From assembly GCF_005406125.1 (NCBI RefSeq), contig NZ_BIXZ01000010.1:42270-106269 (forward strand): a DNA stretch of 64,000 nt, read 5' to 3'. A program made the translations under genes and the position numbers. Within the stretch, counting starts at the first letter, position 1, and every line of letters starts with the position of its first letter. A model generated the notes under the pieces. The model did no database searches. It was not told where the DNA came from and saw nothing but the letters and a program-made list of their open reading frames with translations. Below are positions 24,203 through 49,114 of this stretch, one piece after another. Source of the DNA: Haloarcula mannanilytica (GTDB taxonomy: Archaea; Halobacteriota; Halobacteria; Halobacteriales; Haloarculaceae).

Positions 24203-25438
24203 TCACCTGTTCCAGTTAACGCCGCTGGTATCATTTTGCTGGGAGTCTGTGACTGCCAGTGTGATTCTTCCTTTACCTGGGATCCTGGGAGGCTCTTTAC
24301 TGAGAGCGATCTTGCCGTCTTGCTCGAGTCCACTTACGTAACGACGGGCTGATTCGGTTGCACAAGCGAATTTGTCGGTGTTCCGGGTTACATACTGACT
24401 GAGTTCAGACTGAAGGTAATCCCAGACCTCTCTCCCATCTGAAAAACCCCAACGGTCGGATAATTGTCCGTTTGATGTGGGTTGTTGCTCTACAATATCG
24501 ATTACTCGACGGTCAAAGGTATCTATACTTCTGTCCTGAATCGTGATTTCGAACGGTCGCCAAGCGGTTGATCCGCCTGGCCAAAGATTCCCGTACAGGC
24601 ACCGATAGAGAACCTGTCCTCCCTGCGTAACTAACTCCCGTAGCTGACTGTCGTTCTCAATTGATGCATATTCGCTGACATCCATCAAAAATAGACTGAA
24701 CGACTGAAATGCACCTAGTGAGGGATTGCGCCGGCAACGAGATTTGTGGAAGCTAATGCTCTTTTTAACGCTCTGGACTGTATGCTGTTTCCGGCGGTAA
24801 CTGTCCTCAGTGCTCTGGAATCGCTCTATAACGCGTTCTGCGTCCGACAAATCGCTAATAATCGGCAAAGGTCCGAGGGTTGATTTTGCGAATCCGACTT
24901 GATCATCGAGATCCATCTTTATCTCGTCTTCTGGGATTCCCCAGTAATCGATTGCTTGATCTACGTATTTATTCCGAGAAGTAGAGTTGCGCTTCGTTGT
25001 GATTTCAGGACGGGAAATCGGACATCGATCGTTAGCGTCTAACAAGTATCCACTTAGAGTTGGGTCGATACACCGTGCCGAAAATGGTATTGCTTCTACA
25101 GTATAGACATATTCTGCACCCTCGGTATCCACGACCCTTAGTACACCGAAGTGGTCCGTAAGAAGGTCCATTGGCTCATATTTCATCCAATTGAACAAAT
25201 CATCTAGCTCTTCCTTGTCGATGGGGAAGTCTGGAGCGAGTTCATTTGCGGTGTATCGGGCACCCTTGAGGCGATCGACAACGAGATCGGTGACTGGTTC
25301 CTCAAAAACGTGAATTCCGCCACGTCTGTTTGAAGGTACTGTTTCTGCAATCTTGCCGTCGGTCACGACGTGGCCCGCGTCCACAAGCTCTTGCCTTTCT
25401 ACCTCGGGCTTGTCATAGAATTCGTCTGTCGGAATCAT
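24203..25438 (-). CDS. wHTH protein of the restriction operon, paralogue of 37796-38950
   Basis: The 411-residue protein shares several blocks with the protein at the other end of the operon: GVLRVVDTEGAEYVYTVEAI then PF.AR.IDPTL (versus GVIRGVDSDG.SLYYTLQTI, PFFARVVDPTL), and LGPLPIISD...ERVIERF (versus LLPLPYIED...ERVSRRF). An N-terminal wHTH-like segment (YTANELAPDFPIDKEELDDL) and a C-terminal one (NGQLSDRWGFSDGREVWDYL) can be seen. No enzyme motif. Last gene of the minus-strand operon, 72 bases after the nuclease gene. Probably a DNA-binding or regulatory component; unknown family. Confidence 0.65.
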   Translation of the reverse strand: MIPTDEFYDKPEVERQELVDAGHVVTDGKIAETVPSNRRGGIHVFEEPVTDLVVDRLKGARYTANELAPDFPIDKEELDDLFNWMKYEPMDLLTDHFGVLRVVDTEGAEYVYTVEAIPFSARCIDPTLSGYLLDANDRCPISRPEITTKRNSTSRNKYVDQAIDYWGIPEDEIKMDLDDQVGFAKSTLGPLPIISDLSDAERVIERFQSTEDSYRRKQHTVQSVKKSISFHKSRCRRNPSLGAFQSFSLFLMDVSEYASIENDSQLRELVTQGGQVLYRCLYGNLWPGGSTAWRPFEITIQDRSIDTFDRRVIDIVEQQPTSNGQLSDRWGFSDGREVWDYLQSELSQYVTRNTDKFACATESARRYVSGLEQDGKIALSKEPPRIPGKGRITLAVTDSQQNDTSGVNWNR

Positions 25439-25510
25439 AGCTTTCGGGTGTATCGGTTGGTTATTCTCTGATCCAGTTCGTACATTATTGGTATTCGTGC
25501 CGGTAAGCGC

Positions 25511-28500
25511 TCAGGTAGATTCAATCAACCGGCTGATGAGTGAGTTCCGTTCCAAAGTTTCTCGATCGCCAACTAATGTAACGTCTTGTGCACAGTTGAA
25601 GCAGGTGTAGAGTTGCTCAATATCACTCACGGGCGGAGTGACCACTCGTTCTTCGCCTGTAACGGCGATACTGACTACAGCTGAGTCTACATGAGCTCCA
25701 GATAGCTGATCGGGGAGACGAACCGCTATGTCTTTCCCAATTTCTTCTAACTCTTCTTGAATGGCATTTGCATGGGCGACAAAGGGAGTAACAACCAAAT
25801 CTGGAGAGACGTTTGTACAAACTTCAGCTACCTTTTCAGCTTCGGCTTTATTCTGTGTCAGGCGCTGATGAAGGTATGGTGTCGCATGTACGGGGATACT
25901 GACCTTCAGACGATGATGATCGCTATCAATAGGATTACTGGTCCGGACTTTGAATCTGATGTCCTGGATTGTGTATGTCTCGCCGAACGTTAGTGCGCTC
26001 GCGTCAAGGGTTCTAAGTTGTTGTAGAGACTGAGAGATATGGACTGCATCAACTTGTTCGACTGGTTCCAGCCGGATGAAGCGGGTTTCGTCTTCTTCAG
26101 TGGATGTTGGTACTTGATACTCTAGTGAGGTTTCACCGATGGCCGTTGCTATTGCTCCATCCGTATCTCTAAATTCGAAACTTCCGTCAATAGTCTCAGC
26201 GTCAAGTTCCAGCCCCGAAAATGCAGATTGCATTGTACGAGTGAGTTCTGCTTTCACCTGAATGCTCTGACTGTCGTCGCTCTCAACATTCGCGAACCGC
26301 CGGTATAGACGGTTAAAATACGCCTCGTCAAGACGGGCCTCTCTAGCCTCCCCACTGACAATCTCAGGACCAGACCGTCGAGTGTCACCAATTGCCGCTA
26401 CTCGATCGCCGAGAATCTGGAGGAAATGGAACTGGGGTTCTGCAAGACTTTCCGCACCCACAATTACGATTGTGTCGAAGAATTTGTCAGTATGGGGCCG
26501 AACCGACTCATCACCATCTCGCATAGCGTGGAATACCTGTTCACTAAGCGCATAGCGTGCCGATGAAACCACGACAGATGCGTCGCGAAGCCCCTCATAA
26601 ATCTCGTGCCCATCAGACGTTCCAGTAAGACCCGTCGTCGCTCCACCAGCGAATCCGTCCATTCTAGTCGCCCCTTCGACTGATGAAAGTCGCTCTTCGA
26701 CCGAGTCGGTTATTTCAGGCCGCGTACAGAGAATTAACGCGCGTTGTTCATCGTCAGGTATCTCTTCGCCACCAGCGGGGCTTGGATACTGCTGCGTGGC
26801 AAGTTTTGTAACAATATCAGTAACGAGCGTAGTCCGCTCGCGACGGACTGGAACATCCAGATATAATTCCTTTGCGTCGGTGTACTCGGAAAGAGAATTT
26901 AGGTCCGAAGGGTCAAGACTGTCCTCGTTATCGCCGGCCTTTCCTGTCGTTTCAAGGAGGGGTGATACTTCTCCTCGCTGAGCGTAGTCCAGTTGTGACA
27001 ACAGCTCACGTGGTAGAGAATCAGCGGCGACGGTACGGACGGCTTCATACGTCTCCGTAGGATCAAGGAAGGCTGAATTGGGCGTTGATTTCAGCTGGAA
27101 GACATACTTGTTCTCAACCCGGCCATAGTATGTGGCTTCTTGATAGTATTCTGTGCCGGTCTGCATGAGACGCACGCCCGAACCTGGGGTAAAGGACGGA
27201 ACTAGCCCCGCATCTGACGTGAAGACCATCCTTCGTTGCCCCTCTAAGGCGTTAAGCTTGAGATCAGGGATTCGTAACCCTGCCTCTGACAGTGTTTCTG
27301 GAGCTAATTGCTCAAGTTCGTAGCCTAATCGTTTCCGATGGTCTCGCTCAGTGTTCAGTCCCTGACGAAGCCCCGTGTAATGGTCGGTGACAGCGGGATC
27401 TCGGAATTCGAGTCGTTGGTCACAATCGTCGAAAAGCGGACACTGGGATATGATGTTCCCTTCATCGTCTGATTCAAAGCACGGCCAACGGCGCTCAGAC
27501 TGACAGTAGTATTGACAAGGTGATGGAAGAATCTCATTTTCCTCTTGGTCGGTTGTCGGTGACTTGAACGTACAGCCAGTACAATCCCGACCGTAAGTCG
27601 TCGGCACACCGAATCCATCGCGAAGAACAGATGCCTCATTCCGGAGAGAAAGAATGTCTTCTACATCGCGGCGCCGTAATTCGACTTCTTCCAACACGAC
27701 GCTCGATTCGTTCGCAAGGTTCGGATACACGAGATAGCCGCTGACCCCTTTGTCAATTCGATCATGAAGACGCTCTCCCGTCTCAAGAGTTTCGACGAGG
27801 AATGCTAGGAGATAGACCCGGAGCTGAAATCGGTGATGATTCCGTGTTTTATCGGTCAGCTTGTAGTTGGTTTTGAGATCATAGGGGGTCCCATCGATGA
27901 TTAGGTCAACGCGGCCATTAAAGCCGACAGAGGCAGATAGGCCTACTTCTGCACTAACGTTAGTCGCTGAAGCGATTCGATTTGTAAACTCGTCGTCTGT
28001 CAGAAGACGAGTAGCAGCATCTAACGCGTTCTCCCGAATTCGGTTGGGGCTCACCCATGCCAACCGACACAGAGCCATCTCGATAGAATACTCTGACTCA
28101 ATTAGCTCTTCAAGAGACGCCTCAACTTGAGCTTCCGACCATCCACCTTTGAATTGACCTTTGCCCCCTTCTTCGATGGCGTGTTCTACTAATGTGTGGA
28201 CAATTCTACCTTTGATTGCTCCGGGAGAAAGATCGTACCTACCGGGTGAATATACGTTCTTCTCGTAGAGAAGGTCGTAAATACGGGGGCACTCGCTAGC
28301 GGAGCGCATCTCACTTTTGCCGATTGCGGTATCCGGGTCTCGGATTATGATTCCGGTGACGTTGAAATACCACTTGCCGTTGTGTGTGTTAGGGATCCCC
28401 CTGACGACGACCGACTCGTCTTGCTGTAAAGGCACCTCGTCGATTATTTCACGAAGATACGATGCGGTTCGCCCGAACGAGTCCGTCCAAGCAGGATCCT

Positions 28501-28684
28501 CATGCCAGATCGAGAGGAAGGCATCACCTTCGAACTGACCAGACACCCGAACTGGATACAGTGTCTTGTCTCCGCCTTGTTGCCCTCTTCTTGGGTCACC
28601 AACGACTGTACATCGGATAGTGACTTCCTGGCCATAGTGCGTCTCGTCGTCAACGATGTCCTGAATCGGATAGATCATCTTCAT
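25511..28684 (-). CDS. PD-(D/E)XK nuclease fused to degenerate Dna2-like helicase
   Basis: The 1057-residue protein begins with an OB-fold-like region (1-120, ending VTGIIIRDPDTAIG). A Cas4/Dna2-type nuclease follows: SECPRIYDLLYEKN, GAIKGRIVHTLVEHA, then GRVDLIIDGTPYDLKTNYK (about 259-277) giving the D...D-x-K active site, and cysteines DCTGC (about 368) and CQYYC...C..C that may hold an iron-sulphur cluster. The C-terminal half resembles an SF1 helicase (VIVGAESLAEPQFHF near 745, AAIGDTRRSGPE, a final VTLVGDRETL), but no Walker A GKT is visible. So it is probably a nuclease with a structural helicase fold. It overlaps the DUF1998 gene by four bases and is the likely effector. Confidence 0.75.
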   Translation of the reverse strand: MKMIYPIQDIVDDETHYGQEVTIRCTVVGDPRRGQQGGDKTLYPVRVSGQFEGDAFLSIWHEDPAWTDSFGRTASYLREIIDEVPLQQDESVVVRGIPNTHNGKWYFNVTGIIIRDPDTAIGKSEMRSASECPRIYDLLYEKNVYSPGRYDLSPGAIKGRIVHTLVEHAIEEGGKGQFKGGWSEAQVEASLEELIESEYSIEMALCRLAWVSPNRIRENALDAATRLLTDDEFTNRIASATNVSAEVGLSASVGFNGRVDLIIDGTPYDLKTNYKLTDKTRNHHRFQLRVYLLAFLVETLETGERLHDRIDKGVSGYLVYPNLANESSVVLEEVELRRRDVEDILSLRNEASVLRDGFGVPTTYGRDCTGCTFKSPTTDQEENEILPSPCQYYCQSERRWPCFESDDEGNIISQCPLFDDCDQRLEFRDPAVTDHYTGLRQGLNTERDHRKRLGYELEQLAPETLSEAGLRIPDLKLNALEGQRRMVFTSDAGLVPSFTPGSGVRLMQTGTEYYQEATYYGRVENKYVFQLKSTPNSAFLDPTETYEAVRTVAADSLPRELLSQLDYAQRGEVSPLLETTGKAGDNEDSLDPSDLNSLSEYTDAKELYLDVPVRRERTTLVTDIVTKLATQQYPSPAGGEEIPDDEQRALILCTRPEITDSVEERLSSVEGATRMDGFAGGATTGLTGTSDGHEIYEGLRDASVVVSSARYALSEQVFHAMRDGDESVRPHTDKFFDTIVIVGAESLAEPQFHFLQILGDRVAAIGDTRRSGPEIVSGEAREARLDEAYFNRLYRRFANVESDDSQSIQVKAELTRTMQSAFSGLELDAETIDGSFEFRDTDGAIATAIGETSLEYQVPTSTEEDETRFIRLEPVEQVDAVHISQSLQQLRTLDASALTFGETYTIQDIRFKVRTSNPIDSDHHRLKVSIPVHATPYLHQRLTQNKAEAEKVAEVCTNVSPDLVVTPFVAHANAIQEELEEIGKDIAVRLPDQLSGAHVDSAVVSIAVTGEERVVTPPVSDIEQLYTCFNCAQDVTLVGDRETLERNSLISRLIEST

Positions 28685-30813
28685 TTGCCTCCATCAAGTA
28701 CCGCTAGTGCGCGTGCGAGGAGACGGCGGTCGAGCATCTGTTCTTGATACCGATACTGGTGTGTGCAGGAATCCCGTTTTAGACAGTCCGGGCATGCATG
28801 AATACACTGCTTGGTTACCTCTTCTATCCGTTCAGCCAACTCACTGAGATCGCGGCGCTGGGAACGTCTATTCGCAAACCGACGATACGTTTCTCTGACC
28901 CGGGTGTCGAAGAACGTTCGGTCCTCCAAAGCAAATACTAAGTCTACCGGCCGTGGTGTGCGGTTTAGTTGTTCCTTTGTTGTCGTATATGTCTCAGCAA
29001 CAACGCTATAGAAGCGGGCCATTTCCCGAGTTTCGGCAATTCGGTTAAGGCGTCGGTGAAGTAGCGGTTTGACGTCATCGTACCGAGCGTACGAGAAGTC
29101 GACTCCAAGGTCCTGAAACACATCATTGAACTCGGGTACGTCGCGCCCAGATGCAATCTCGTTCGTTTGGGCGAGGTCAAACACGTACTCTCCAGAGTAT
29201 TCCTTCAGCAAGGAAACCAACGTCTCTTCTGTAGCACCAATATGGCAGCTCGACTGTTCAGCAAGCCCGCTTAGCAGTTCAGTATCGGATAGCTCGCGTA
29301 AGTCATCGAAGACTTCACGGCTCACACCAGCACCGCCTTGAATTGAATCATAGATACCGATCTCAACGGTTTCGCCGCTCGTCTCTACGAAGTTCACGTC
29401 ATACCAAGCTTCGAAGTCACCACCTCCGGCACTGTATTCTGCCGCCCACGAAGCAAGTCCATGTTTGAGTGAATGGATAAAGACATGCTCAGCAAATTGC
29501 CTCACTGACTCGCCGTCAGCACACTCCTCAATGATGGATTCCAACGAATCTCCATATTCATCCAGAAGCGTCTCATAAGTCGAGATTTCCCCGTCATCGT
29601 AATCAAGCAACCCTAACCGCCGGTCCTTAGACGGTAAGAGGCTCGGAAGACGTGCTTCAATGTCGTTAACACTGGCCTCAAATAGCGAGTCTGGCCCGTC
29701 AGACCCCATCGAAAAGAGGTAGTCAACCGCAATTAGGGCACGATAGAACGGGGTAACGCTAAATGCGTGCTCGAGAGCCTCCTCTTGGAAGAACAGGCGA
29801 TCCCATAATCGACGGTATAAGAGCGAAAATTGGAGGTCTCGGAAAAGTGGCGTTTCTTTCTGGAAGACTTTGTCAAGTAACTCAGTGACTATCGACCGGT
29901 CTATATCAAACATCAGAACCTGGCTTTCCTCACGGCTACCGACGAATGCAGTGGCGTCATCTTCCTCGTGACGATAGCGAATTACCTCAGAGAATGTCCT
30001 CTCTTCGCCGTATAACGTCAACAGGGTGGCATAGTACGATTTAAGAAATGTCGCGTCGCTGTTGAACTCTCCCTGCTCAATAAGGCCACCGGTCATCGTC
30101 GACAAATCCAGTGACTCTGGACTGTCACCTCGTCCAAGGGGGTGCTTAAACCAGAGGAACTGCGAGGTCGGATCACTTTTCAGCGTCGTGAGCTCCTCTT
30201 CCGGGACGTCCTCTGGTTTCTGGTTCCTTACAACCCCGTTCGCAGAATCCCAATAGTAGTGCGTATGCTCTCCGTTCTCACCCACGCTCGGATTCCAGAC
30301 GATGAACTGTTGGGGAATATAGACGCTTACCTCATCTACAGGGTGCTCAAACGGTGTGTACCGCTCTTCTTCACTCTGTGGTAGAATCTCGGACAGTTGG
30401 CTGGATGTTCGAATGCGCAGCCCGTCGTTAATATCTGCAAATCCTCTTCTCGATGAAGGCCCGAAATCGCCAGTCCATAGGTCGAATTCCCATCGACGTT
30501 TGTAGCCGCCGGGCAGAAAGCTCCCCAACATAAGATCGAGCGGCTCATTCGCCAAAAAGCCGCCATTCGCGTTGACAACACTGATGTTACCGCCGACCTG
30601 CTCAGAGATGAACGTACCAGGAACGCTAAATGGCCTTGTTGCCTCTGGATCAAGTTCGAAGAGGTCTGGTATATGGCAATATGGACGGAAACGATTACGC
30701 TGGACCTTATCGAGTAGGTCAGATTGGTATTGAATCAGGCCATTAAGTCGTGCCAGCAATCGCTCTTCTTGCGTTAGGTCATCTGCTTCCGAGAGAGGAG
30801 TTTGATCGCTCAT
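28681..30813 (-). CDS. DUF1998 (DrmB/MrfA-type) zinc-binding protein
   Basis: The 710-residue protein ends with HACPDCLKRDSCTHQYRYQE (about 673-692), the cysteine cluster of DUF1998/MrfA zinc-binding domains. An internal LKHGLASWAAEYSAGGGDFE block and IGIYDSIQGGAGVSRE (compare the D-x-x-x-G-G-x-G motif of DUF1998 proteins) support this. In DISARM the equivalent gene, drmB, always accompanies the drmA helicase; here the DEVH helicase gene lies directly upstream with a four-base overlap. Expected to work as a complex with that helicase on DNA. Confidence 0.7.
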   Translation of the reverse strand: MSDQTPLSEADDLTQEERLLARLNGLIQYQSDLLDKVQRNRFRPYCHIPDLFELDPEATRPFSVPGTFISEQVGGNISVVNANGGFLANEPLDLMLGSFLPGGYKRRWEFDLWTGDFGPSSRRGFADINDGLRIRTSSQLSEILPQSEEERYTPFEHPVDEVSVYIPQQFIVWNPSVGENGEHTHYYWDSANGVVRNQKPEDVPEEELTTLKSDPTSQFLWFKHPLGRGDSPESLDLSTMTGGLIEQGEFNSDATFLKSYYATLLTLYGEERTFSEVIRYRHEEDDATAFVGSREESQVLMFDIDRSIVTELLDKVFQKETPLFRDLQFSLLYRRLWDRLFFQEEALEHAFSVTPFYRALIAVDYLFSMGSDGPDSLFEASVNDIEARLPSLLPSKDRRLGLLDYDDGEISTYETLLDEYGDSLESIIEECADGESVRQFAEHVFIHSLKHGLASWAAEYSAGGGDFEAWYDVNFVETSGETVEIGIYDSIQGGAGVSREVFDDLRELSDTELLSGLAEQSSCHIGATEETLVSLLKEYSGEYVFDLAQTNEIASGRDVPEFNDVFQDLGVDFSYARYDDVKPLLHRRLNRIAETREMARFYSVVAETYTTTKEQLNRTPRPVDLVFALEDRTFFDTRVRETYRRFANRRSQRRDLSELAERIEEVTKQCIHACPDCLKRDSCTHQYRYQEQMLDRRLLARALAVLDGGK

Positions 30814-33599
30814 TTGTTGGAAGTGTTCTCCAAGTCGAGATTCCCCGCCGCAATCTCCTGGAAAAGCCGGCGCTTGAACTTCAGATCATCAAGGCTCTCC
30901 TCGAGATCGGCCTGACGAGTCCCTCTAGGGAAGCGTGCTGCCTCCCAGAATTCTTGGATGTCCCCTCCACCTACACTTGCAGGTGTTAACGGGGCCTGTG
31001 TTAGATTGATGTAGTCTCCAATTTCATCAATCACGGCAGTAATCTGCTCCTCGGGCACCATCGGGAACGCCTTGCGGAGCCAGTTAGCGATCTCATCCTG
31101 CTCATGTGTGAATTTCTCGTCTAACTCCTCAATGTCTAATCTTCGGTATATCTCGTCCGCGGTTTCGTTGTCAGTGACGTTCAAGTAATCGAAGATGGCA
31201 GAGACGAGGTGCTCTGTTCGAACAAACCTGTTCTCTTCATCCAGATTGATTTCGAGGTACCTCTCATCTGGGTCAGAGAGCAGGTTTTCATGGTGGAAGT
31301 AGAATGCGTCTTCAGGACGTGACCCGAGAACGACTACTGAGATTGGTTGATCATCAGGATCACGACCTCCTCTCCCTTTCCGTTGTACGAATCCGGGGAT
31401 GTTCATTGGTGCTCGGTACTGGAAGGTTCCAATTATGCCGGGATGATCGAACCCAACTTCCAGTGCGCTAGTAGTGACCATAAGGTCCCAATTGTCGTCT
31501 TCAACGCGGGTCCCATCCGGAGTCTCGGTTCGGCCACTTTTGTGCAGGTAGACATCCATCGGCTCAAGGTCAAGCTCGTCGGTCATCGTCCACCAGCACT
31601 CACCTGCCTCATAGACTGGGCATGGATTCAGGTTCTTGTTCGGAGGAAGTGGTTCACAGACCGCCCGTTCATGGGATGCTGCATTCGATCTGAACTGGTG
31701 CTTGGGGCAGTCTGGATTCGTCCCTGGTTCATCTTCGTCTCGCAGGAAAGCATCAGGAGTACGGAGAGTAAATAACTCCTGACCCTCGACACCTCGTCCA
31801 GACTCTGCGTCTTGGATATAATCACCTAGTCTTTTGACGGAATCGATCGAGTCAACGAACCCCAGAATTTTGTTCTTCAGTTGACCCTCGTCAGACTCCT
31901 GTTTGAGGATCGTATGGTACATCGTGAAGGCGACCTGAATCATGGACGAGAGATTCGTTACGTTCGTCTCTTCGAAGTCCTCTGGCCCCCATTCACGCCG
32001 AGGTTTGTACTTTGCTTCACCCTGTGGAACCTGGACCTCTCGGGGGTCTGTAGCCTTTATAAATACGAGATATTCCCACCCGATTTCTTCAATCTCACTC
32101 TCTTTTCTAAATTCCTTACTCGTCTCCTTCCATGGGATGTCTTCGTTCTTCCCTCGGGGAGTGATCTCTCTAGCACTGGGTGCCCCAAATATTGCCTCCG
32201 TGAACTGTTCAGCGTTTGATATTGTTGCACTGGAGGCAACCAAGTTGGGTTGTTGGTCAGGATCGACTTCACGCATCGCAGCTTGGAACCGCCGCATTAC
32301 GTTTGCGACATGCATTCCGTACTGGTTCGTATAGACGTGAACCTCGTCGAGGACAACGAACTTTGGAGGTGACGCGTGTTTCCAGAACTGATCGTAGCCC
32401 CGGTGATCCATCAACCGTCGATGAAGAGTATCGGGAGTGACTACGATGATGTCGGCTGTGGCTCCCTTATCTGATCGGGCAAAGTCAGCCTTATGCGCGG
32501 GATCCTTGTCACAGACCATTTCATCGGTCGGCATTCCCCCATCACAGCCGTCAACGGGGCAGCTGATCTCGGATTGGCTTGCACTACCGTGTTGGAGAGC
32601 AACTGTTATCGGGAGCGAATGATAGGGCAGTTCGTCGTCAGCAGCGATAATCTGTTCAATCTCGTATAGATACTCGACGATGCGCTCAAATTGGTTATCA
32701 CACAGATCTTTTCGGGGGTATGCAAGAACAGCGTCAACACCGCCTACCCGAATGTTGTCATGGTTCGCCGTCAGGCTGTATGCGAGTATCGGGAACAAGA
32801 AGGCCTCTGTCTTACCACCGCCGGTGCTCGCGGTAATAACGTGGGCCCGTTCTTCGTTTCGTTCGGTAACTGCCCGGCGATAGAGTTCATCGAGGGATCT
32901 CCCCTGGAATGAAGCTAACCCGGTCATACCCCGGCGCTTACAAAGCCTGTATATCAGGGTGAGCGCATCATTCGTGGCCTCTCGCCAGTCTGTACGCCCG
33001 ACAGACCCAAACTCAGAAGCAGGTTCGCCGGTGCTTGCGCGCTGTAAAATCTCTCTAATTTTGTCCCCCAAGTCAATTCCTTGGTCGCCCCATTTAGGCT
33101 TCTCACGGGACTGTATGTCCATCTTGACCATCTTCGTGAGACTGGGAGCATGCTCGAATCCACTTTGGTCAGCGAACCGCTGGCGAAGTAGTGCGAAGTA
33201 CCTAGTGACTTCTGCTACACGACTCCGAACGCGTTGTTTGTCGTAGACATAGAGTAGGACATCCCTTTCGACAAGCTTGTCGATGACGTGTTGGAAGAGT
33301 AGCTGGCTGGCCGTTTTGGTAGTTAGCTGAGCAGGGAATACGTAGGTAATATCGATATTTTCGCCAGTCTCCGGTTCATTCTCACCGAGTACGAAGGTTC
33401 GGTGAAACCGATCGAACAGGTCGGACAGTGCTACCGTAGAATCGTAGTTACCGGCGTTGATCTGCTGCTTACAAGCATTATCAACCCATCTAAGGACATG
33501 CTGTTGGAGGTCATCATGGTCTTCCCCGTCAACTAGAACCTCCCACATCTCCTTGACAGCATCAAGGTGCTCATGCTGTCCCATCGCTGCATTACTCAT
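30810..33599 (-). CDS. DEVH-box SF2 helicase, DrmA-like
   Basis: The 929-residue protein has Walker A ITASTGGGKTEAFLFPILAY (near residue 260), VDAVLAYPRKDLCDNQ (motif Ia), box II VVLDEVHVYTNQYG (near 425), motif III SSATISNAEQF, and C-terminal motifs TTSALEVGFDHPG and FVQRKGRGGRDPDD with the arginine finger. A cysteine-rich insert (CPKHQF ... CEPLPPN ... CPVYEAGECWW, about 630-680) may bind zinc. The N-terminal 250 residues are unassigned. Family resemblance is to DrmA, DpdJ and other defence helicases that pair with DUF1998 proteins. Overlaps its neighbours at both ends. Confidence 0.75.
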   Translation of the reverse strand: MSNAAMGQHEHLDAVKEMWEVLVDGEDHDDLQQHVLRWVDNACKQQINAGNYDSTVALSDLFDRFHRTFVLGENEPETGENIDITYVFPAQLTTKTASQLLFQHVIDKLVERDVLLYVYDKQRVRSRVAEVTRYFALLRQRFADQSGFEHAPSLTKMVKMDIQSREKPKWGDQGIDLGDKIREILQRASTGEPASEFGSVGRTDWREATNDALTLIYRLCKRRGMTGLASFQGRSLDELYRRAVTERNEERAHVITASTGGGKTEAFLFPILAYSLTANHDNIRVGGVDAVLAYPRKDLCDNQFERIVEYLYEIEQIIAADDELPYHSLPITVALQHGSASQSEISCPVDGCDGGMPTDEMVCDKDPAHKADFARSDKGATADIIVVTPDTLHRRLMDHRGYDQFWKHASPPKFVVLDEVHVYTNQYGMHVANVMRRFQAAMREVDPDQQPNLVASSATISNAEQFTEAIFGAPSAREITPRGKNEDIPWKETSKEFRKESEIEEIGWEYLVFIKATDPREVQVPQGEAKYKPRREWGPEDFEETNVTNLSSMIQVAFTMYHTILKQESDEGQLKNKILGFVDSIDSVKRLGDYIQDAESGRGVEGQELFTLRTPDAFLRDEDEPGTNPDCPKHQFRSNAASHERAVCEPLPPNKNLNPCPVYEAGECWWTMTDELDLEPMDVYLHKSGRTETPDGTRVEDDNWDLMVTTSALEVGFDHPGIIGTFQYRAPMNIPGFVQRKGRGGRDPDDQPISVVVLGSRPEDAFYFHHENLLSDPDERYLEINLDEENRFVRTEHLVSAIFDYLNVTDNETADEIYRRLDIEELDEKFTHEQDEIANWLRKAFPMVPEEQITAVIDEIGDYINLTQAPLTPASVGGGDIQEFWEAARFPRGTRQADLEESLDDLKFKRRLFQEIAAGNLDLENTSNK

Positions 33600-38950: not shown

Positions 38951-38992
38951 ATTGATAGCCAACTCTCGGTGACAGATATTTCTGTTCCTGTC

Positions 38993-40885: not shown

Positions 40886-40886
40886 G

Positions 40887-42223: not shown

Positions 42224-42895
42224 GTGGAAACGTCGTCAGCCAGGCACCTAGAGACGGTTCAGCCGGATTGGGACGACCTTCCGCTAGCTTGCGAGTTGCT
42301 TGAGTTGCGACGGCGTGAGCCGAATGCCGATCTGCGGACATTAGCTTTCAACAGAGGTGTCGTGGGGTCAAGAAAAGTTCAGCACGTGACTCAACTCTTG
42401 GAACTGCTTGACCTTCTGGATGAGGGCGAACTAACTGAAAGAGGGCGATGGCTTACTGAAGCGTATGAACCTGCACTGCAACAGAGTCATTCTGGAGCAA
42501 AGTTAGGCATCGGAGTGAAAGATTCGCTATCGTGTACCGAACAGGCCCTTCTCTGGATGGTTATTTTTTATGAGCACCGTTTGCCAATGCTGGCAGTTCT
42601 CCATCAGCTCACAGTTGAAACCGTTCCGACAACTCAAGACACACCAGCGGCACAGAGGTTCGGTGAGCGAATCGACCATCTCTACCCCGATGTCGATAGT
42701 GACAGTTCGTGGGTACCACGTGCTAAAGTACACTACAAGTGGTTAGTCCACCTGGAACTCGCGAAGATTCGGTCAAGTAGTTACGTTCTGACCGAGATCG
42801 GCGACGGTGTTTTTGAGCAAGATGAGGCAGAGTATCCTGACCAATGGGATTCGATACAGATCCATACTGGCCCTACACTATCTGACTTCGGTTAG
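42224..42895 (+). CDS. Winged-helix-like hypothetical protein
   Basis: GTG 42224 lies about 28 bases after AAATTATATTG, consistent with a leaderless mRNA. The 223-residue protein has helices like DLRTLAFNRGVVGSRKVQHV followed by LDLLDEGELTERGRWLTEAY, a typical wHTH ending. No enzyme motif. It is divergent from the preQ0 operon and 80 bases upstream of the large TGT-like gene; probably a regulator or DNA-binding part of the modification module. Confidence 0.55.
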   Translation: METSSARHLETVQPDWDDLPLACELLELRRREPNADLRTLAFNRGVVGSRKVQHVTQLLELLDLLDEGELTERGRWLTEAYEPALQQSHSGAKLGIGVKDSLSCTEQALLWMVIFYEHRLPMLAVLHQLTVETVPTTQDTPAAQRFGERIDHLYPDVDSDSSWVPRAKVHYKWLVHLELAKIRSSSYVLTEIGDGVFEQDEAEYPDQWDSIQIHTGPTLSDFG

Positions 42896-42975: not shown

Positions 42976-45879
42976 GTGCGGTTCTACGTACCTGAGTGGG
43001 ACGACGCAGTCGACTCCCACTACGATTTCGAACACGACGAACTCTCTACCTTGAATCGTCAAGAGCGCGATCTGGACTATATCTGGGACATTTTCGAGCC
43101 CGAAACCACACCAGTAGACGGGGTTCTCATATCTCGCGAACAGGTCGAAGAGACAAACCGCAAAGCCGAGCGACTAGCCCAGTACGGTGTCTACGATGAC
43201 CCCGTACTTTCTATCCCGAATTGGTTACCGACGATTAGTGACTGCGGGGCTTGGGGGTACAAGTCGCTCCCTTTCCCACCGTACGGGAACGAGGATATGC
43301 TCGACTTCTACGAGACGCTGGACGTTACTGTCGGCGTCACTATCGACCACCTCGTTCTAGGGTCAGGAAAGGACAAGGGGCGGCTTTATCTTGACGAACG
43401 CGCGTTCGACGGAGAACTCAACAAAGGCGACATCCCCGATCCCATCACCGACGTCGTTGACGTTATGATCGAGGAATGGCCAGAGGAATGGCCCTCATAT
43501 GTCGACGAGTACGAGCCGACGATTCGTACTGATCCCGATATAGAAGTTGAGCCGTTCATCGCTGAGGACTTTCGGGGTGACATTGATACCGTTCTGTCCC
43601 GGCTCGCACAGGATTCACGTGCGGTCTATCGCGAACACGACGCCGAGTTCCGCTACGACCTGACGCTGCGGAACGCCCGAGAGATGTATGACCTCTACCA
43701 GCGTCGTGACTATCCGTTCCGACTGATGGTCGCTATCCAGGGATGGAACCCTGATTCATACAGTAAGGCCACCGAGGAAGTGCTTGGTATGGGTTATGAC
43801 TACCTCGGAATCGGGGGAGTCGCAGGTAGCCCAGTTCACGACGTTCGTGGAATCGTCAAGAGCGTCGGGAAGACGATCAAGCAGTTCGAACGAGAAAACA
43901 ACACCCGCATCGACTCTCACGTCTTCGGCTTCGCGAAGACTGAGGCGTTCGAGACGATTGGTCGGTCGGGGATGACTAGTTTCGATAGCGCGAGTATGCT
44001 TCGTTCGGCGTGGACCGGTGGACAGAATTATCGTCTTGATAACGACGAACGCTACGATGCCATTCGAGTTCGCTATCCATCGAGCCGGGACGATCTCGAC
44101 GAAGCTGTTGAAACGTCCCTACGCGGTCGTGAAACATTGGTGGCACTCCGGGCATACGATACAGGAGATTCGATTCGTAATGCTCTCGAGAGTTGGTACG
44201 AACAGGCTGAGAAGGTGCTTCCAGCGACGAGAGAATATCTCCTGGAACACCGCCACGATGATCAGTATGATGAGTCGCTCCTACAGGACATAGAAAGAGC
44301 GTTCCGAGAGGATTTCGAGTATGGCCGCGAGGTTCAGGCGAGCTTCAGTGATAATCTCCGTAGTAAGTTAGTCAAACTCCTGCGGGAAGATACCCCGACT
44401 GCTCCAGTTCCGTTCGAGGAGTACGACGAACTACTGAGCACAGCGGTAGACGTATTTGAGGAGTTCCCACACGCGAAGACCGTTTTGAACGAGCCGTACG
44501 TTGTCAGTGACTATGATCGAGTCTGGGCGATTGTCCGGGATTACGCTACTTGGATCGGTGACGACGACCTGCTCCAAGAGTATCAAGACACCCTTCGAAG
44601 TCGTCCGTGGGAGAAATGTGACTGTCCAATTTGTAGAGAGTACGGTGTCGAGGTTTGCATCTTCCGGGGGAACGATCGGAATCGGAGACGAGGGTTCCAC
44701 AACACACGACGCTTCTATGATGAATTCGAGGAAGACCTTCCGAAGATTCTCGTCGCGACCCAAGGGGATGCAGCCTACAGTGGCTACGAAACTGTTGAAG
44801 ACTATCTGCGCGACAAACACTCCTCGTTCTGGACTCAGACGCATGACCTTCCTGTTGCAGAGATTGGTGTACTAGATGCGAACGGCGTGAGTGAGTGGTG
44901 GGAAGAAACCCCGTCGCTCGTCTCGTTCGCCCCAGATCGTATGGCAGCAAACGTCGGCGAACAAGCAGCGAGGTACCAGCACCTCTTCGTACACACATTG
45001 GATGGTGAACTTGACGAAGAAGCCGTAGCGGCTGCTCGGGAAAACGGTTGCGAGGTACACACCAATAGCAACCCTCGAGACTTGCGAGATGAAATACTCG
45101 AGGTCTGCGGGCAAAACTATGCAGCTAGTGACGACTTCGTGCCTCATCCACCTGAGATTGATACCGAAAACGGATTGGACATCCTTGTCATCGACCAATG
45201 TTCAGGATCGAAGGAGATACCAGACGACGCGCCGATTTTCGGTGAAGAGGAAACTCTCCAATTCTCTCGTGAAGACCTACTCGCTCGGGATAATGTGCCA
45301 GGTATTGCAGCACGCGACCTATACACGGGACGCCAGCAAAACCACGTCAAGAGTGCAGTTAGATGGCTTCTGCGACAAGGTCACGACGTCGACCGTTACT
45401 TCGTAAGTGCAGGATTTGGCCTTGTCGCAGAAGACGAGTATCTCCCCCCCTACGAGGTAACATTCAGCTCAATGAATGTTAGCGACATAAGAGAGCGATC
45501 TGCGAAACTCGACATTCAAAAAGACCTGCGACACCTCCTTCAAGAGGCCGATTATGATGTCGTCTTCTTTACCCTTGGGAAGGACTATTACACCAGTATC
45601 GACATCGACGAGATGGTCCAGGAGGTACGTTCAGACCGGATTGGTGTGGTCTTCAATCGCGAACTTGTCGAAGACCAATTTGACAATATCGAATCCATTC
45701 CCGCGCGGACAGAGGACGCAAAAGAACATAGCACGATCGTTGTTGGACTCAAGGGTCACTATATGAAGAATTTCGCTCGATACATCGATACTGTCGATAC
45801 TCTTCGCCCGGAAACTATCGAAGAACTATGTCGGCGAGTAGAGGAAGTACCACCACAAGCGGAATTCGAGTCTGAGTGA
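42976..45879 (+). CDS. TGT/DpdA-like transglycosylase fused to a DUF6884-like domain
   Basis: The 967-residue protein has a TGT-like core: PTISDCGAWGYKSLPFPPYG with the putative catalytic D89, VGVTIDHLV, YDYLGIGGVAGSPVHD (equivalent of the GLAIGG loop), HVFGF and TSFDSASM with a second Asp near 336, and zinc residues CDCPICREYGVEVC (near 548) followed by a histidine. Residues about 735-870 form another domain: ILVIDQCSGSKEIPDD, ARDLYTGRQQN, YFVSAGFGLVAEDEYLPPYE, which I assign to DUF6884. TGT-like DpdA enzymes exchange guanine in DNA for preQ0. Lack of tRNA-binding PUA and the neighbours point to DNA rather than tRNA. GTG start. Confidence 0.75.
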   Translation: MRFYVPEWDDAVDSHYDFEHDELSTLNRQERDLDYIWDIFEPETTPVDGVLISREQVEETNRKAERLAQYGVYDDPVLSIPNWLPTISDCGAWGYKSLPFPPYGNEDMLDFYETLDVTVGVTIDHLVLGSGKDKGRLYLDERAFDGELNKGDIPDPITDVVDVMIEEWPEEWPSYVDEYEPTIRTDPDIEVEPFIAEDFRGDIDTVLSRLAQDSRAVYREHDAEFRYDLTLRNAREMYDLYQRRDYPFRLMVAIQGWNPDSYSKATEEVLGMGYDYLGIGGVAGSPVHDVRGIVKSVGKTIKQFERENNTRIDSHVFGFAKTEAFETIGRSGMTSFDSASMLRSAWTGGQNYRLDNDERYDAIRVRYPSSRDDLDEAVETSLRGRETLVALRAYDTGDSIRNALESWYEQAEKVLPATREYLLEHRHDDQYDESLLQDIERAFREDFEYGREVQASFSDNLRSKLVKLLREDTPTAPVPFEEYDELLSTAVDVFEEFPHAKTVLNEPYVVSDYDRVWAIVRDYATWIGDDDLLQEYQDTLRSRPWEKCDCPICREYGVEVCIFRGNDRNRRRGFHNTRRFYDEFEEDLPKILVATQGDAAYSGYETVEDYLRDKHSSFWTQTHDLPVAEIGVLDANGVSEWWEETPSLVSFAPDRMAANVGEQAARYQHLFVHTLDGELDEEAVAAARENGCEVHTNSNPRDLRDEILEVCGQNYAASDDFVPHPPEIDTENGLDILVIDQCSGSKEIPDDAPIFGEEETLQFSREDLLARDNVPGIAARDLYTGRQQNHVKSAVRWLLRQGHDVDRYFVSAGFGLVAEDEYLPPYEVTFSSMNVSDIRERSAKLDIQKDLRHLLQEADYDVVFFTLGKDYYTSIDIDEMVQEVRSDRIGVVFNRELVEDQFDNIESIPARTEDAKEHSTIVVGLKGHYMKNFARYIDTVDTLRPETIEELCRRVEEVPPQAEFESE

Positions 45880-46018: not shown

Positions 46019-47053
46019 ATGTTGTATCGACGCAGGAAACTCGACCTCCCCCGAGGGGAATTAGATACCCCTGTTCTCTTCCCCGTCAGAAACATCGGGA
46101 AGCGGTCGAGTGACAATACACCGACGTACGTCGGCACGATCCCAGAGTTCTCGGCAGCGATGATCAACGCGAGATCAATTCGCAACCGAGACCCAATGTG
46201 GCAGAGAATATCGAATGGTGTAACATTACGGGAGGAAATGGACGTCCCCGAGGACACCATCGTTTTCGCTGATAGTGGTGGGTTCGATTTCGCCAACGAA
46301 GAAGTGGACACTACCCCAGCAAAAACGCTTGATACCCAGAGACAATTGGACGCGGACATCCTCGGTACAGTCGACATTCCTCTCTCAAGGGAGAATCGGG
46401 CAGCAGAAAACCAACGGCGAATCGACCAAAGCATCGAGTACGCACTCAAAGCGAGCGACCATCACGATGGGGAGGGCCTTCTCTTCGCGAGTGTCCATGG
46501 TTACGATCCAGAGACGATCCGGAATAACATACAATACTTAGAGAAGAATGGTGAATTCGATGGCTATGCCCTCGGAAGTATGGTTCCAATACGAACCGAC
46601 TATAAAAAAGTAACAAAGCTGATACTATCTGCACGAAACGCGACAGACAAGCACCTCCACGTGTATGGTCTCGGAGGTCTCGTCTATCAACCACTGCTGC
46701 TCTACTTGGGGGTCGACAGTTTCGACTCTTCGGCCTTCATTCGTAGTGCAGGCAACCGGAACTACCTAATTCCGGGATTCGGGGGAGAAGAACTACGGAA
46801 TATCGAGGAACTAGACAGGCTCCCCTGTCCATGCCCAGTGTGTGGACAAAAAGCACTCGACGAGATTCGCGAAGACCGAACTGCCCTGACCCAGCATAAT
46901 CTCTGGGCACTTGCGACCGAGCTGCGACGCTTCCGGTATGTCGCCGAATCTGGTCGAGATATTGAGGAGTACCTCGACTTGCGCTTCAGCGGAAACGAGG
47001 TCACTAAGCGGGCATACGAAACCGCGAAGCAACAGATGAGGAGGCTCTCATGA
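46019..47053 (+). CDS. dpdA: DpdA-like (TGT-family) DNA guanine transglycosylase
   Basis: The 344-residue protein contains FADSGGFDFANEEV (catalytic Asp near 85), LLFASVHGYDPETI, GYALGSMVPI, LHVYGLGG, GVDSFDSSAF (nucleophile Asp near 235-238) and a zinc site CPCPVCGQKA (near 269) followed by HNLW. These are the main TGT landmarks in order. At single-domain length, without PUA or ArcS-type extensions and next to preQ0 genes, DNA modification is the better guess than tRNA archaeosine synthesis. ATG 46019 lies about 30 bases after CACTAAATAAG. The next two genes overlap or abut it, forming an operon. Confidence 0.75.
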   Translation: MLYRRRKLDLPRGELDTPVLFPVRNIGKRSSDNTPTYVGTIPEFSAAMINARSIRNRDPMWQRISNGVTLREEMDVPEDTIVFADSGGFDFANEEVDTTPAKTLDTQRQLDADILGTVDIPLSRENRAAENQRRIDQSIEYALKASDHHDGEGLLFASVHGYDPETIRNNIQYLEKNGEFDGYALGSMVPIRTDYKKVTKLILSARNATDKHLHVYGLGGLVYQPLLLYLGVDSFDSSAFIRSAGNRNYLIPGFGGEELRNIEELDRLPCPCPVCGQKALDEIREDRTALTQHNLWALATELRRFRYVAESGRDIEEYLDLRFSGNEVTKRAYETAKQQMRRLS

Positions 47054-47946
47054 GCGATGAGAGACCAACTGTAAGGCCAGTCACTCTCAGCCGGATGGCT
47101 GAACTGACTCATGCCTGTGAAGCAGTTAGCAAGTCGACTGTAGATCTTGAGGACGACTTGGAGGTAAGTCACCGCCGTGCACGTGAAACAATCCTTGAAG
47201 CAAAGCGTATCTCCTTGCTCGACGAAGATGATTCTGGCGAGGAACCAGTCTATACGACGACTGATGTCGGTTTGTCATTCCTTAGTGCAATTCGCGACGA
47301 GGACTGGAGCCAAGTAAGTACGATCTTGGAGACACGTAGTCCCCACTACGGGACATTCATCGAGGTTCTCGAAAACGTCGAAAACGCTGGTTTAGACACA
47401 CTCTTGACTCAATTGGAAGAGGCACAAGAGTTCAGCCCATATTCATATAATCAAACGAGTGTGGAGGTCCTTGGGGATTGGGCTGAGCGGTTGGGCCGAG
47501 TCCAACGAAACGCGTTCACAGGTAACTACTACTTGGTAGACCAGGCGGCGATATCCGCTAACTACCACTACCTGCTTTTGGACGTGTACGACGATCTTGA
47601 AGAGAGAGCAGGTGTTGACCTTCGACAACGCTACCTGTCGATTCCACGTCTCCGTGAGGAGACCTGTGAACGCCTCGGCTGCACTCGCGATGATTTCGAC
47701 GCAGCGCTACTGGAGCTCTGCCGACAGAACGTCGGTAAGCTCGAGCTGTCGGGAGCGCCAATGGATACGGCTGCGAAGGATTCCGCACTCGGCATCAAGC
47801 GTATAGCGCTCTCTGAAGAGGACGGTTTAGTTAGCACATCCCAGTCCACTCAGCAGGTTATGGCTGGCGTTGAACAGTTCGGTAAGAAATACTACTACCT
47901 CGCGGTGCATGACCGCGACATCGAATACTCGCAGGAGGCTACATAA
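47050..47946 (+). CDS. wHTH protein in the modification operon
   Basis: ATG 47050 overlaps the dpdA-like stop by four bases. The 298-residue protein begins with a helix-turn-helix (EAVSKSTVDLEDDLEVSHRR, then ETILEAKRISLL) and a possible second one near LREETCERLGCTRDDFDAAL. It pairs with the ATPase that follows, repeating the small wHTH plus ATPase pair seen at 36977/33592. A DpdG-like role is possible; I cannot verify the family. Confidence 0.6.
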   Translation: MSDERPTVRPVTLSRMAELTHACEAVSKSTVDLEDDLEVSHRRARETILEAKRISLLDEDDSGEEPVYTTTDVGLSFLSAIRDEDWSQVSTILETRSPHYGTFIEVLENVENAGLDTLLTQLEEAQEFSPYSYNQTSVEVLGDWAERLGRVQRNAFTGNYYLVDQAAISANYHYLLLDVYDDLEERAGVDLRQRYLSIPRLREETCERLGCTRDDFDAALLELCRQNVGKLELSGAPMDTAAKDSALGIKRIALSEEDGLVSTSQSTQQVMAGVEQFGKKYYYLAVHDRDIEYSQEAT

Positions 47947-49103
47947 TGTCCGACACATTCACGATCACCGACGAACAGCAAGACTACTCACAGTACGACC
48001 TAAACGCGAACCCCTTCCCATACAGTCCAGTTCCAGCTGAAGACCCCGAGATTTACTGTGGGCAGCAGCACGTTTCGGATAAGATCAGCTCGACGGTTTC
48101 GTCGATGTTGTCTACTGGGAAGTCGAAACATCTGGTAGTCACTGGAAAGTATGGGAATGGGAAGTCTCACACGCTCAAATACACGCGCTCGCTCCTCCGT
48201 GGTCGCGACGACGTCGTCGTGGGATATGTCGCCCAGCCTGGTGAAGGATTTCTCGACATCTACCACGAGTTTGTCTACGACCTGGGTTTCAACCGAGTCC
48301 AAGAGCTCGCGTACGAGTTTCTTGCATCTGTGGCGAGAGATGTCACCGACACAAACCCGATCGGTGCCAGTGGGATGGAATCGCTGATTGACGAAGGCGA
48401 TGTGCTGCTCTCGGAAATTGTCCCCGAGGCGATTCGCCGCCTCAGCGATGTGACGAAATTCGCCGACTTTGCGCGTGCCATTATCCACATGGTGTACGAG
48501 GACACGAATCTCTACGCGTGGCAGTTGCTTACCGCAGAGGGGATTCGTTACGAGCAGCGCAAGGAGATGGAAATTCACAGCGCACTCGACGACGACACGA
48601 TGGGTGTTCGGGCCTTCACTGCACTCAAAAATATGCTCCTCGAACTCGGTTATACGGGTATTTTCGTCTTCGTCGACGAGTTCGAGAGCATCGCGCGACT
48701 CTCACCAAAGGATGAACAGGCAACACTCAACAGCATTCGGCACCTGATGGATCAGAACAGTTCGGGACTGTGCATGCTGTTTGGTTGTGCTCCCGAGGTA
48801 TGGCAAGATGTGATGAGTGAGTACCACGCGTTCAGTGAGCGAATTGGGGAAGAAGTTGCTCTGAAACCCCTTACAAGTGAGAACCTCTATGAGTTGGTAC
48901 GTGATTATCTAGATCAAGAGAGAGTGTCTTCTGCTGATAATGAAGGGATAGAGCCATTCTCTGAGGAGGCGTTGGATTTGATTCTCCAAACATCACAGGG
49001 CAATATCCGACAGGTCCTATCTATGTGTAGTCGTATCCTCGATGATGCTGCAGAATCAAAGGAAAATAAAATCACAGCTGCTTGGGTGGAAGAGACGGTC
49101 TGA
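47946..49103 (+). CDS. AAA ATPase of the modification operon
   Basis: The 385-residue protein has LNANPFPYSP, then Walker A VVTGKYGNGKSHTLKY (P-loop near 67-74) and Walker B GIFVFVDEFESI (near 238), a sensor SSGLCMLFGCAPEVW and a C-terminal helical lid (GNIRQVLSMCSRILDD). It is close in size to ATPases used as DNA-loading partners, and might supply the ATP-dependent step that DpdB provides in the bacterial DNA deazaguanine system; that is inference. Its start overlaps the previous stop by one base. Confidence 0.65.
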   Translation: MSDTFTITDEQQDYSQYDLNANPFPYSPVPAEDPEIYCGQQHVSDKISSTVSSMLSTGKSKHLVVTGKYGNGKSHTLKYTRSLLRGRDDVVVGYVAQPGEGFLDIYHEFVYDLGFNRVQELAYEFLASVARDVTDTNPIGASGMESLIDEGDVLLSEIVPEAIRRLSDVTKFADFARAIIHMVYEDTNLYAWQLLTAEGIRYEQRKEMEIHSALDDDTMGVRAFTALKNMLLELGYTGIFVFVDEFESIARLSPKDEQATLNSIRHLMDQNSSGLCMLFGCAPEVWQDVMSEYHAFSERIGEEVALKPLTSENLYELVRDYLDQERVSSADNEGIEPFSEEALDLILQTSQGNIRQVLSMCSRILDDAAESKENKITAAWVEETV

Positions 49104-49114
49104 TAATCAATAAT

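What the first reader, a model, noticed from the sequence alone, without database searches (positions are those of the whole stretch)
24203..49103. Candidate archaeal 7-deazaguanine DNA modification and restriction island combining Dpd-like and DISARM-like parts
Seen: preQ0 genes queD-queE-folE-queC; two TGT-family proteins without tRNA-binding domains; two AAA ATPases each paired with a wHTH protein; and an overlapping operon of DEVH helicase, DUF1998 protein, and PD-(D/E)XK nuclease fused to a helicase fold. Known: the bacterial dpd island puts preQ0-derived bases into DNA through DpdA and restricts unmodified DNA with helicases and ATPases; DISARM uses DrmA helicase plus DrmB (DUF1998) with a methyltransferase. 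Inferred: this haloarchaeal locus uses a deazaguanine mark in place of methylation and the nuclease-helicase operon as effector. No DpdB, DpdC, DrmC (PLD) or methyltransferase is visible, so it would be a new arrangement.
Basis: partly seen in the sequence, partly recalled or inferred. Interest (0 to 1): 0.95.

Follow-up and report, generated by a model that had tools for sequence, protein, structure and literature searches.

The report
Swappable archaeal deazaguanine DNA-restriction island
A salt-loving archaeon carries a gene island that is predicted to mark its own DNA with a modified guanine and likely to destroy unmarked DNA; in two related archaea the marking genes are nearly the same, but a different set of predicted destroying genes sits beside them.

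Summary
The island is real and coherent. The other half is a DpdJ-like helicase, its DUF1998 part as a separate gene (DrmB/MrfA-like fold), a Dna2-like nuclease whose helicase domain lacks Walker motifs, and an AAA-coiled-coil ATPase. In 391 haloarchaeal genomes the window-type helicase occurs only with DpdA (16 of 16), and DpdA with the short TGT (55 of 56). Haloarcula vallismortis has a 97%-identical modification half but a different restriction half between the same flanks, so the effector is exchanged as a block. Relatives are bacterial Dpd and the haloarchaeal BRIGADE systems (2025 preprint); the window lacks the ARMADA-like helicase of BRIGADE, and no DpdB, DpdH or PLD nuclease was detected: a third effector type, in 8 of 391 genomes. 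Published mass spectrometry of halovirus HVTV-1, which its authors tentatively ascribe to a host DpdA on the H. vallismortis contig with the sibling core, is indirect support for DNA modification. The base in this host and restriction are untested. Verdict: new variant of a known kind.

The parts
24203..25438 (-). DUF5797-domain protein (411 aa), downstream end of the effector module; distant paralogue of 37796-38962
   Evidence: Pfam DUF5797 54 bits; 95-99% identical copies in G110, G171, G285, G356, G302; 26-27% matches to the 388-aa family
25511..28684 (-). Predicted effector nuclease: Cas4/Dna2-like PD-(D/E)XK domain with conserved cysteines, fused to a Dna2/Upf1-type SF1 helicase fold without Walker motifs
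   Evidence: PDDEXK_1 54.9 bits, Dna2 24.1 bits; H163, D260, D269, K271, C132, C368, C371, C390, C394 invariant in 11 of 11 rows; Foldseek top hit Dna2 5ean E 9.6e-28, TM 0.35; no Walker A in 15 of 16 homologues (the one pattern hit, G061 residue 464, lies before the helicase part) and no Walker B in 16 of 16
28681..30813 (-). DUF1998/MZB protein (DrmB-like), separate from the helicase
30810..33599 (-). DpdJ-like SF2 (YprA-family) helicase core
   Evidence: PADLOC DpdJ E 1.4e-55; NCBIfam DpdJ 177 bits, below the equivalog cut-off 800; Walker A and DEVH present in 17 of 17 family members
33592..37002 (-). AAA ATPase with long predicted coiled-coil C-terminus, specific to this effector type
   Evidence: AAA_22/AAA_16 and coiled-coil-type hits; related to the BrxD-like ATPase of the core (hhalign probability 98.3, E 1.6e-14), not to the DpdH-like c15 family (probability 2.4); 8 of 391 genomes
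36977..37744 (-). Small partner of the AAA-coiled-coil protein, predicted winged-helix
   Evidence: Overlapping gene; only weak PqqD/MntR-type hits; beside the ATPase in G110, G171, G285, G356, G167, G061
37796..38962 (-). Predicted HTH protein (388 aa), upstream end of the effector module
   Evidence: Weak HTH matches; in G110, G171, G285, G356, G167 at this place and, at 36%, elsewhere in the G061 locus
38994..38994 (.). Cassette junction: homology to Haloarcula vallismortis (97.3% over 13,041 bp to the right) stops here and resumes at 23949
   Evidence: blastn; G384 breaks at the same base
39585..40280 (-). QueC
   Evidence: Pfam QueC 255.6 bits, TIGR00364 over cut-off
40277..40885 (-). FolE (GTP cyclohydrolase I)
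   Evidence: Pfam 177.6 bits
40887..41660 (-). QueE (radical SAM)
   Evidence: Radical_SAM 63 bits; best NCBIfam hits are QueE models, below their cut-offs
41660..42115 (-). QueD
   Evidence: PTPS 70.9 bits, over cut-off
42224..42895 (+). Unknown 223-aa protein upstream of dpdA
   Evidence: No Pfam hit; 7 members among the related loci
42976..45879 (+). DpdA with C-terminal DpdC-like (DUF6884) domain
   Evidence: NCBIfam DpdA 276.8 bits, cut-off 200; DUF6884 over cut-off; PADLOC DpdC 2e-7; D89, D337, C548/C550/C553/H575 invariant in 18 rows
46019..47053 (+). Second, short TGT (catalytic domain only), near-obligate partner of DpdA
   Evidence: Pfam TGT 93.5 bits; D85, D236, C270/C272/C275/H293 invariant in 17 rows; these columns align with own arcTGT; in 55 of 56 DpdA genomes
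47050..47946 (+). Small partner of the BrxD-like ATPase, predicted winged-helix
   Evidence: Overlapping gene, no family hit; kept between the short TGT and the ATPase in related loci
47946..49103 (+). BrxD-like AAA ATPase, candidate substitute for DpdB (inferred)
   Evidence: BrxC_BrxD 54.4 bits over cut-off; PADLOC BrxD 1.7e-11; Walker A and B in 17 of 17

Best explanation
The island is likely a Dpd-type restriction-modification system of haloarchaea in which a conserved modification core is paired with one of several exchangeable restriction cassettes. Inferred steps: QueD, QueE, FolE and QueC make extra preQ0; DpdA with its short TGT partner and the small-protein/BrxD-like ATPase pair swaps guanine for preQ0 in DNA, the ATPase doing the job that DpdB does in bacteria; the DpdC-like domain hydrolyses the nitrile to the amide (dADG). 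Unmarked DNA would be recognised by the AAA-coiled-coil ATPase and its partner, unwound by the DpdJ-like helicase with its DUF1998 part in trans, and degraded by the Dna2-like nuclease, whose Walker-less helicase domain likely serves as a DNA-binding or docking scaffold. Shown here: gene identities, conserved catalytic motifs, co-occurrence, and a different effector block between the same flanks in a close relative. Not shown: the base in this host's DNA, the ATPases' roles, the recognition rule and restriction itself.
For: DpdA over NCBI's curated cut-off with a DUF6884/DpdC-like domain; the two domains are separate neighbouring pieces in 20 of 56 genomes and fused in the opposite order in Paenibacillus and a cyanobacterium, so they belong together. 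A full-length arcTGT, a further TGT-family protein that I read as ArcS (my label) and a second QueC sit elsewhere in the genome, so the island is probably not needed for tRNA archaeosine. Co-occurrence in 391 genomes: DpdA 56, short TGT 56, shared 55; window-type helicase 16 genomes, all with DpdA (Fisher p 4e-15, relatedness not corrected); AAA-coiled-coil 8, all with that helicase. Exchange: H. vallismortis (G051) matches the window at 97.3% over 38994-52000 and 94.3% over 22123-23949, with a 20 kb tandem-YprA/PLD cassette in between instead of this 15 kb one; on a DpdA tree of 23 rows the three effector types need 8 changes where 2 is the least possible; the close tandem-YprA type (26 genomes) and the window-type helicase (16) share no genome among the 56 (P 3.5e-6, relatedness not corrected). 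In vivo hint: HVTV-1 has about 30% of its G as dPreQ1 without a viral DpdA, and its authors propose the host DpdA on AOLQ01000002 (PMC6884629, passages), the contig of L016, whose four core proteins are 98-99% identical to the window's.
Against: No chemistry on any haloarchaeal host DNA was available. 14 of 56 DpdA genomes have neither of the two effector helicases counted, 5 of them with one long ARMADA-like match, so the core may also work with other effectors or alone. Effector labels are more clustered on the DpdA tree than chance (8 changes, shuffled mean 11.3, as low in 4 of 200), so exchange is repeated but not free. Helicase, nuclease and ATPase functions rest on homology; the AlphaFold models are of middling confidence (mean pLDDT 67.6 and 65.3, pTM 0.68 and 0.47). 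DpdB was sought with one model in 40 of the 56 genomes. The winged-helix labels are weak.
Confidence: 0.72

Rival explanations
1. Two independent neighbours: a deazaguanine modification unit and an unrelated defence operon that share a plasmid defence island without working together.
For: The core occurs with other effectors or with neither of the two helicases counted (14 of 56); the halves differ in GC (0.498 vs 0.526-0.594); they are separate operons.
Against: The window-type helicase was found only in DpdA genomes (16 of 16), as was the close tandem-YprA type (26 of 26), and the two cassettes stand in for one another at one junction. Co-occurrence numbers are inflated by relatedness.
Confidence: 0.13
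2. The effector is aimed at foreign DNA that bears a different deazaguanine (such as dPreQ1 of halovirus HVTV-1), the host mark being tolerated: a type IV-like, modification-dependent restriction.
For: Haloviruses of the Druskaviridae encode the preQ0/G+ pathway (PMC8651126, passages); HVTV-1 carries dPreQ1 (PMC6884629, passages).
Against: Bacterial Dpd, the nearest characterised relative, acts against unmodified DNA (as told in PMC11888242, passages); HVTV-1 infects H. vallismortis, a species whose sequenced strain carries the sibling core, though with the other effector.
Confidence: 0.08
3. It is a reduced or eroded BRIGADE type I system that lost its ARMADA-like helicase and is no longer active.
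For: The helicase/DUF1998/nuclease triad is shared with genomes that also have an ARMADA-like helicase (32-45% identity in the triad).
Against: All genes are open with motifs kept; the set is kept in 8 genomes of 7 genera, down to 42% identity in the AAA-coiled-coil and 58% in the helicase; a specific ATPase/partner pair stands where the others have c14-c15.
Confidence: 0.07
4. An accessory archaeosine (tRNA) modification cluster.
For: The short TGT is nearest arcTGT among curated models (134 bits vs DpdA 34).
Against: The genome has its own full-length arcTGT; no PUA hit in the island TGTs; DpdA over the DpdA cut-off; tight linkage to helicases and a nuclease.
Confidence: 0.03

Closest known systems
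BRIGADE types I and II (haloarchaeal YprA systems; PMC12458937)
   Same: Haloarchaeal; deazaguanine biosynthesis cluster; YprA-family helicase of the Dpd branch; PD-(D/E)XK or PLD nuclease. The window's modification core is 97% identical in DNA to one attached to a tandem-YprA cassette, which I take for type II, and its helicase/DUF1998/nuclease triad is homologous to that of type I-like loci.
   Different: No ARMADA-like YprA helicase found, no DpdH-like c15, no c14/c16/c18/c19 and no PLD in the island; instead an AAA-coiled-coil plus small partner. The preprint's supplement (system maps) could not be read, so the authors may have seen such loci; equating my loci with their types is my inference from the text.
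Bacterial Dpd (dpdA-K; Thiaville 2016 recalled, not read; summarised in PMC11888242 passages)
   Same: preQ0 genes, DpdA, DpdC-like domain, DpdJ-like helicase with a nuclease.
   Different: No DpdB or DpdK detected; helicase and DUF1998 part in separate genes, the latter keeping four invariant cysteines where canonical Dpd lost the zinc cluster (per PMC12458937); BrxD-like ATPases; DpdA-DpdC order opposite to that of the Paenibacillus and cyanobacterial fusions.
DISARM (DrmA/DrmB/DrmC plus methyltransferase)
   Same: Helicase and DUF1998 protein as separate neighbouring genes; DrmB fold match.
   Different: Helicase nearer DpdJ; no methyltransferase or DrmC hit.
BREX-related capture systems with TGT (PMC12839542, passages)
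   Same: TGT combined with BREX-like ATPases.
   Different: No PglZ, HerA/FtsK or GNAT among the hits here; DpdC-like domain present.

Membership tests
Dpd | DpdA transglycosylase | tested here: met
   NF041059 276.8 bits, cut-off 200
Dpd | preQ0 biosynthesis genes in the island | tested here: met
   QueC, FolE, QueE, QueD
Dpd | DpdC | tested here: met
   As a fused C-terminal domain: DUF6884 over cut-off, PADLOC DpdC E 2e-7
Dpd | DpdB (DGQHR/ParB-like ATPase) | tested here: not met
   TIGR03187: 0 of 40 DpdA genomes over cut-off, window genome included; 1 of 40 (G162) below it; 16 of the 56 not tested. One model only; passages of PMC12839542 say DpdB has been suggested dispensable in certain clusters
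Dpd | DpdJ helicase | tested here: inconclusive
   Best PADLOC family DpdJ E 1.4e-55 but 177 bits against the equivalog cut-off of 800
Dpd | DpdH ATPase and DpdK PLD nuclease | tested here: not met
   No hit; AAA-coiled-coil does not align with the DpdH-like c15 family (hhalign probability 2.4)
Dpd | dPreQ0 or dADG in DNA | not testable with these tools
   Needs LC-MS
BRIGADE | Deazaguanine biosynthesis cluster in a halophilic archaeon | tested here: met
BRIGADE | Usually two YprA-like helicases, at least one ARMADA-like | tested here: not met
   One ARMADA-like query at E <= 1e-20 finds only the DpdJ-like gene in the window genome; the only MZB match is a 914-aa frame on C1, a search that also missed the window's own DUF1998 gene, so it is not exhaustive
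BRIGADE | PLD or PD-(D/E)XK nuclease | tested here: met
   PDDEXK_1 54.9 bits
DISARM | DrmB (DUF1998) as a separate gene | tested here: met
DISARM | DNA methyltransferase and DrmC | tested here: not met
   No such family hit among the island proteins
DISARM | DrmA helicase | tested here: inconclusive
   DrmA 72.8 bits but DpdJ 186.7
BREX | PglZ and BrxX | tested here: not met
   BREX-type hits are to ATPases and helicases (BrxC/D, BrxHI/HII) only

The most novel reading that the evidence does not exclude
Haloarchaea hold a modular DNA-immunity platform: one deazaguanine-marking core, in which two transglycosylases and a BrxD-type ATPase replace the DpdA-DpdB pair of bacteria, is served by at least three interchangeable restriction cassettes that swap as blocks beside it; the window carries an undescribed third cassette built on a split DpdJ-like helicase and a Dna2-like nuclease with a dead motor.
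Probability: 0.45. Interest if true: 0.78.

Novelty: new variant of a known kind. Interest (0 to 1): 0.62.

Why it matters
If right, mark and cutter in this immune system are separable modules: the same mark protects against chemically different cutters, so a population can change its restriction enzyme without changing its epigenome. It also offers a direct test of an open question from HVTV-1 (who writes its deazaguanine, and does the virus borrow the host's self-mark?), because the suspected host enzyme sits in the sibling island of H. vallismortis. The near-obligate second TGT suggests that DNA transglycosylation here needs two TGT subunits, as eukaryotic tRNA TGT does (recalled).
Full report
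Setting. The window is G000:C10:42270-106269 of a 4.2 Mb genome in 33 contigs. The effector half is AT-richer than the flanks (GC 0.498 against 0.597 left and 0.579 right). The flanks hold replication and mobility genes (two Cdc6, a family B polymerase, ParA, a transposase, an integrase-like protein), and the near-identical copy in Halorientalis litorea lies on a 140 kb plasmid, so a plasmid setting is likely.

Modification half. QueC, FolE, QueE and QueD are present. Gene 42976-45879 scores 276.8 bits against NCBI's DpdA model (cut-off 200) and carries a C-terminal DUF6884 domain that PADLOC calls DpdC-like. In 20 of 56 genomes the DpdC-like part is matched as a separate piece right after a DpdA of about 730 residues. 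In Paenibacillus sp. 37 and in Allocoleopsis the same domains are fused in the opposite order, DpdC first. The second gene, 46019-47053, is a TGT catalytic domain alone. Both TGTs keep both aspartates and the Cys3-His site in every family member aligned (18 rows for DpdA, 17 for the short TGT), and these columns align with the genome's own arcTGT. That arcTGT, and another TGT-family protein that I read as ArcS, lie on contig C1, and a second QueC lies on C2. The operon ends with a small protein and a BrxD-like ATPase. No DpdB was found with TIGR03187 over its cut-off in 40 of the 56 DpdA genomes (0 of 40; one, G162, below cut-off). I infer that the BrxD-like ATPase may take DpdB's role. Paenibacillus also has a second short TGT near dpdA, followed by a 246-aa protein and a DpdH-like ATPase, which suggests that a TGT2-partner-ATPase order is not confined to haloarchaea.

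Survey. 391 genomes of the class, drawn evenly from a larger group, were searched with five proteins. DpdA: 56 (E <= 1e-20; one, G131, only a partial 38% match). Short TGT: 56 (E <= 1e-40), 55 shared; G166 has only DpdA, G034 only the short TGT. Same contig in 52 of 55, within 5 kb start to start in 45. Helicase: 35 genomes at E <= 1e-20, all with DpdA; in 16 the match is 46-100% identical over most of the length, in the other 19 it is a local match of about 30% to 1.8-kaa YprA helicases. AAA-coiled-coil: 8 genomes, all among the 16. The ARMADA-like helicase of Natrialba hulunbeirensis as query: 77 of 391 at E <= 1e-20, of which 26 have a copy at 50% identity or more over nearly the full length, all 26 with DpdA and none with the window-type helicase (P 3.5e-6 among the 56, not corrected for relatedness). 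Fourteen DpdA genomes have neither.

Three effector types (labels mine). Alpha: two tandem YprA helicases and a PLD protein (27.7 bits, cut-off 27), preceded by c18-c14-c15(DpdH-like)-c19 in the locus read in full, G005, and in part in G384; this fits BRIGADE type II. Beta: c16 with helicase, DUF1998 and Dna2-like nuclease, plus an ARMADA-like helicase of 34-40% identity to the query in the same genome (7 genomes; an eighth, G387, has only a weak 33% match); in G349 and G305 the two helicases lie about 27 and 115 kb apart. This fits BRIGADE type I. Gamma: the window's, with the AAA-coiled-coil and its partner before the triad and no ARMADA-like helicase at this threshold (8 genomes: G000, G110, G171, G285, G356, G302, G167, G061). 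G302's module is split by contig ends.

Exchange. Window 38994-52000 matches H. vallismortis (G051) at 97.3% over 13,041 bp and window 22123-23949 matches at 94.3%; between them the window has 15 kb of gamma and G051 20 kb of alpha. G384 breaks at the same base. G171 and G110 carry the window's arrangement at 98% over 28 kb. In a 23-row DpdA tree the nearest rows to the window are G110 (gamma), G051 (alpha) and G171 (gamma); the three labels need 8 changes with 2 the least possible, yet they are more clustered than shuffled labels (mean 11.3, as low in 4 of 200). Only rows whose effector I had read were put in the tree (23).

Link to experiment. PMC6884629 (passages) reports that halovirus HVTV-1, whose host is H. 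vallismortis, has about 30% of its G as dPreQ1 although it encodes no DpdA, and suggests as a possibility that the host DpdA (EMA11768 on AOLQ01000002) inserts the base. That contig is L016/G051:C2, whose four core proteins are 98-99% identical to the window's. This is indirect: no mutant was reported in the passages, and EMA11768 itself was not fetched here; G051 has one DpdA and one short TGT match, both on that contig.

Literature. PMC12458937 (outline, sections 5, 8, 26 and passages) describes BRIGADE as haloarchaeal hybrids with a deazaguanine cluster, usually two YprA-like helicases, and PLD or PD-(D/E)XK nucleases, and mentions many uncharacterised Dpd-like classes. PMC12839542 (passages) describes another TGT-bearing BREX-related system. 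PMC11888242 and PMC8651126 were read in passages. Thiaville 2016, Yuan 2018 and Gedara 2023 are recalled or seen only as cited.

Judgement. A real, conserved, probably functional haloarchaeal Dpd relative; a new variant rather than a new kind. The most interesting results are the cassette exchange, the two-TGT core, and the direct experimental handle through HVTV-1.

Noticed in passing
8245-9462: 405-aa protein with five homing-endonuclease-associated HNH_repeat stretches and a weak HNH domain.
   Followed up: no
16365-19979 and 22861-23889: Cdc6 (16365-17654) beside a family B DNA polymerase (17808-19979), and a second Cdc6 next to the island: plasmid-type replication genes.
   Followed up: partly
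50768-51586: ParA-family partition ATPase just right of the island.
   Followed up: no
59051-60727 and 61180-62406: Transposase (DDE_Tnp_1) and a phage-integrase-SAM-like protein at the right of the window.
   Followed up: no
L055 (G285:C69:22619-28792): Halorubrum ezzemoulense has DpdA next to a diverged, inverted BrxD-partner-short TGT unit (53-75% identity) with a second queD-queE-queC set: the core itself can be replaced in part.
   Followed up: no
L073:21040-21963: Bacterial Dpd island of Paenibacillus sp. 37 has a second short TGT near dpdA, followed by a 246-aa protein and a DpdH-like ATPase.
   Followed up: partly
G162:C4:122011-123066: DGQHR-domain (DpdB/DndB-like) protein below the family cut-off, about 10 kb from the DpdA core.
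   Followed up: no
G387:C40:61759-69420 (L045/L046) and G030:C7:138680-146257 (L047/L048): A four-gene set (c35, c44, c45, c46), c44 locally similar to the AAA-coiled-coil family (hhalign 84.9), lies in two DpdA loci: possibly a further effector type.
   Followed up: partly
L072:2922-3806: 294-aa protein beside a cyanobacterial dpdA reads like a divergent TGT-fold protein by eye; no PADLOC hit.
   Followed up: no
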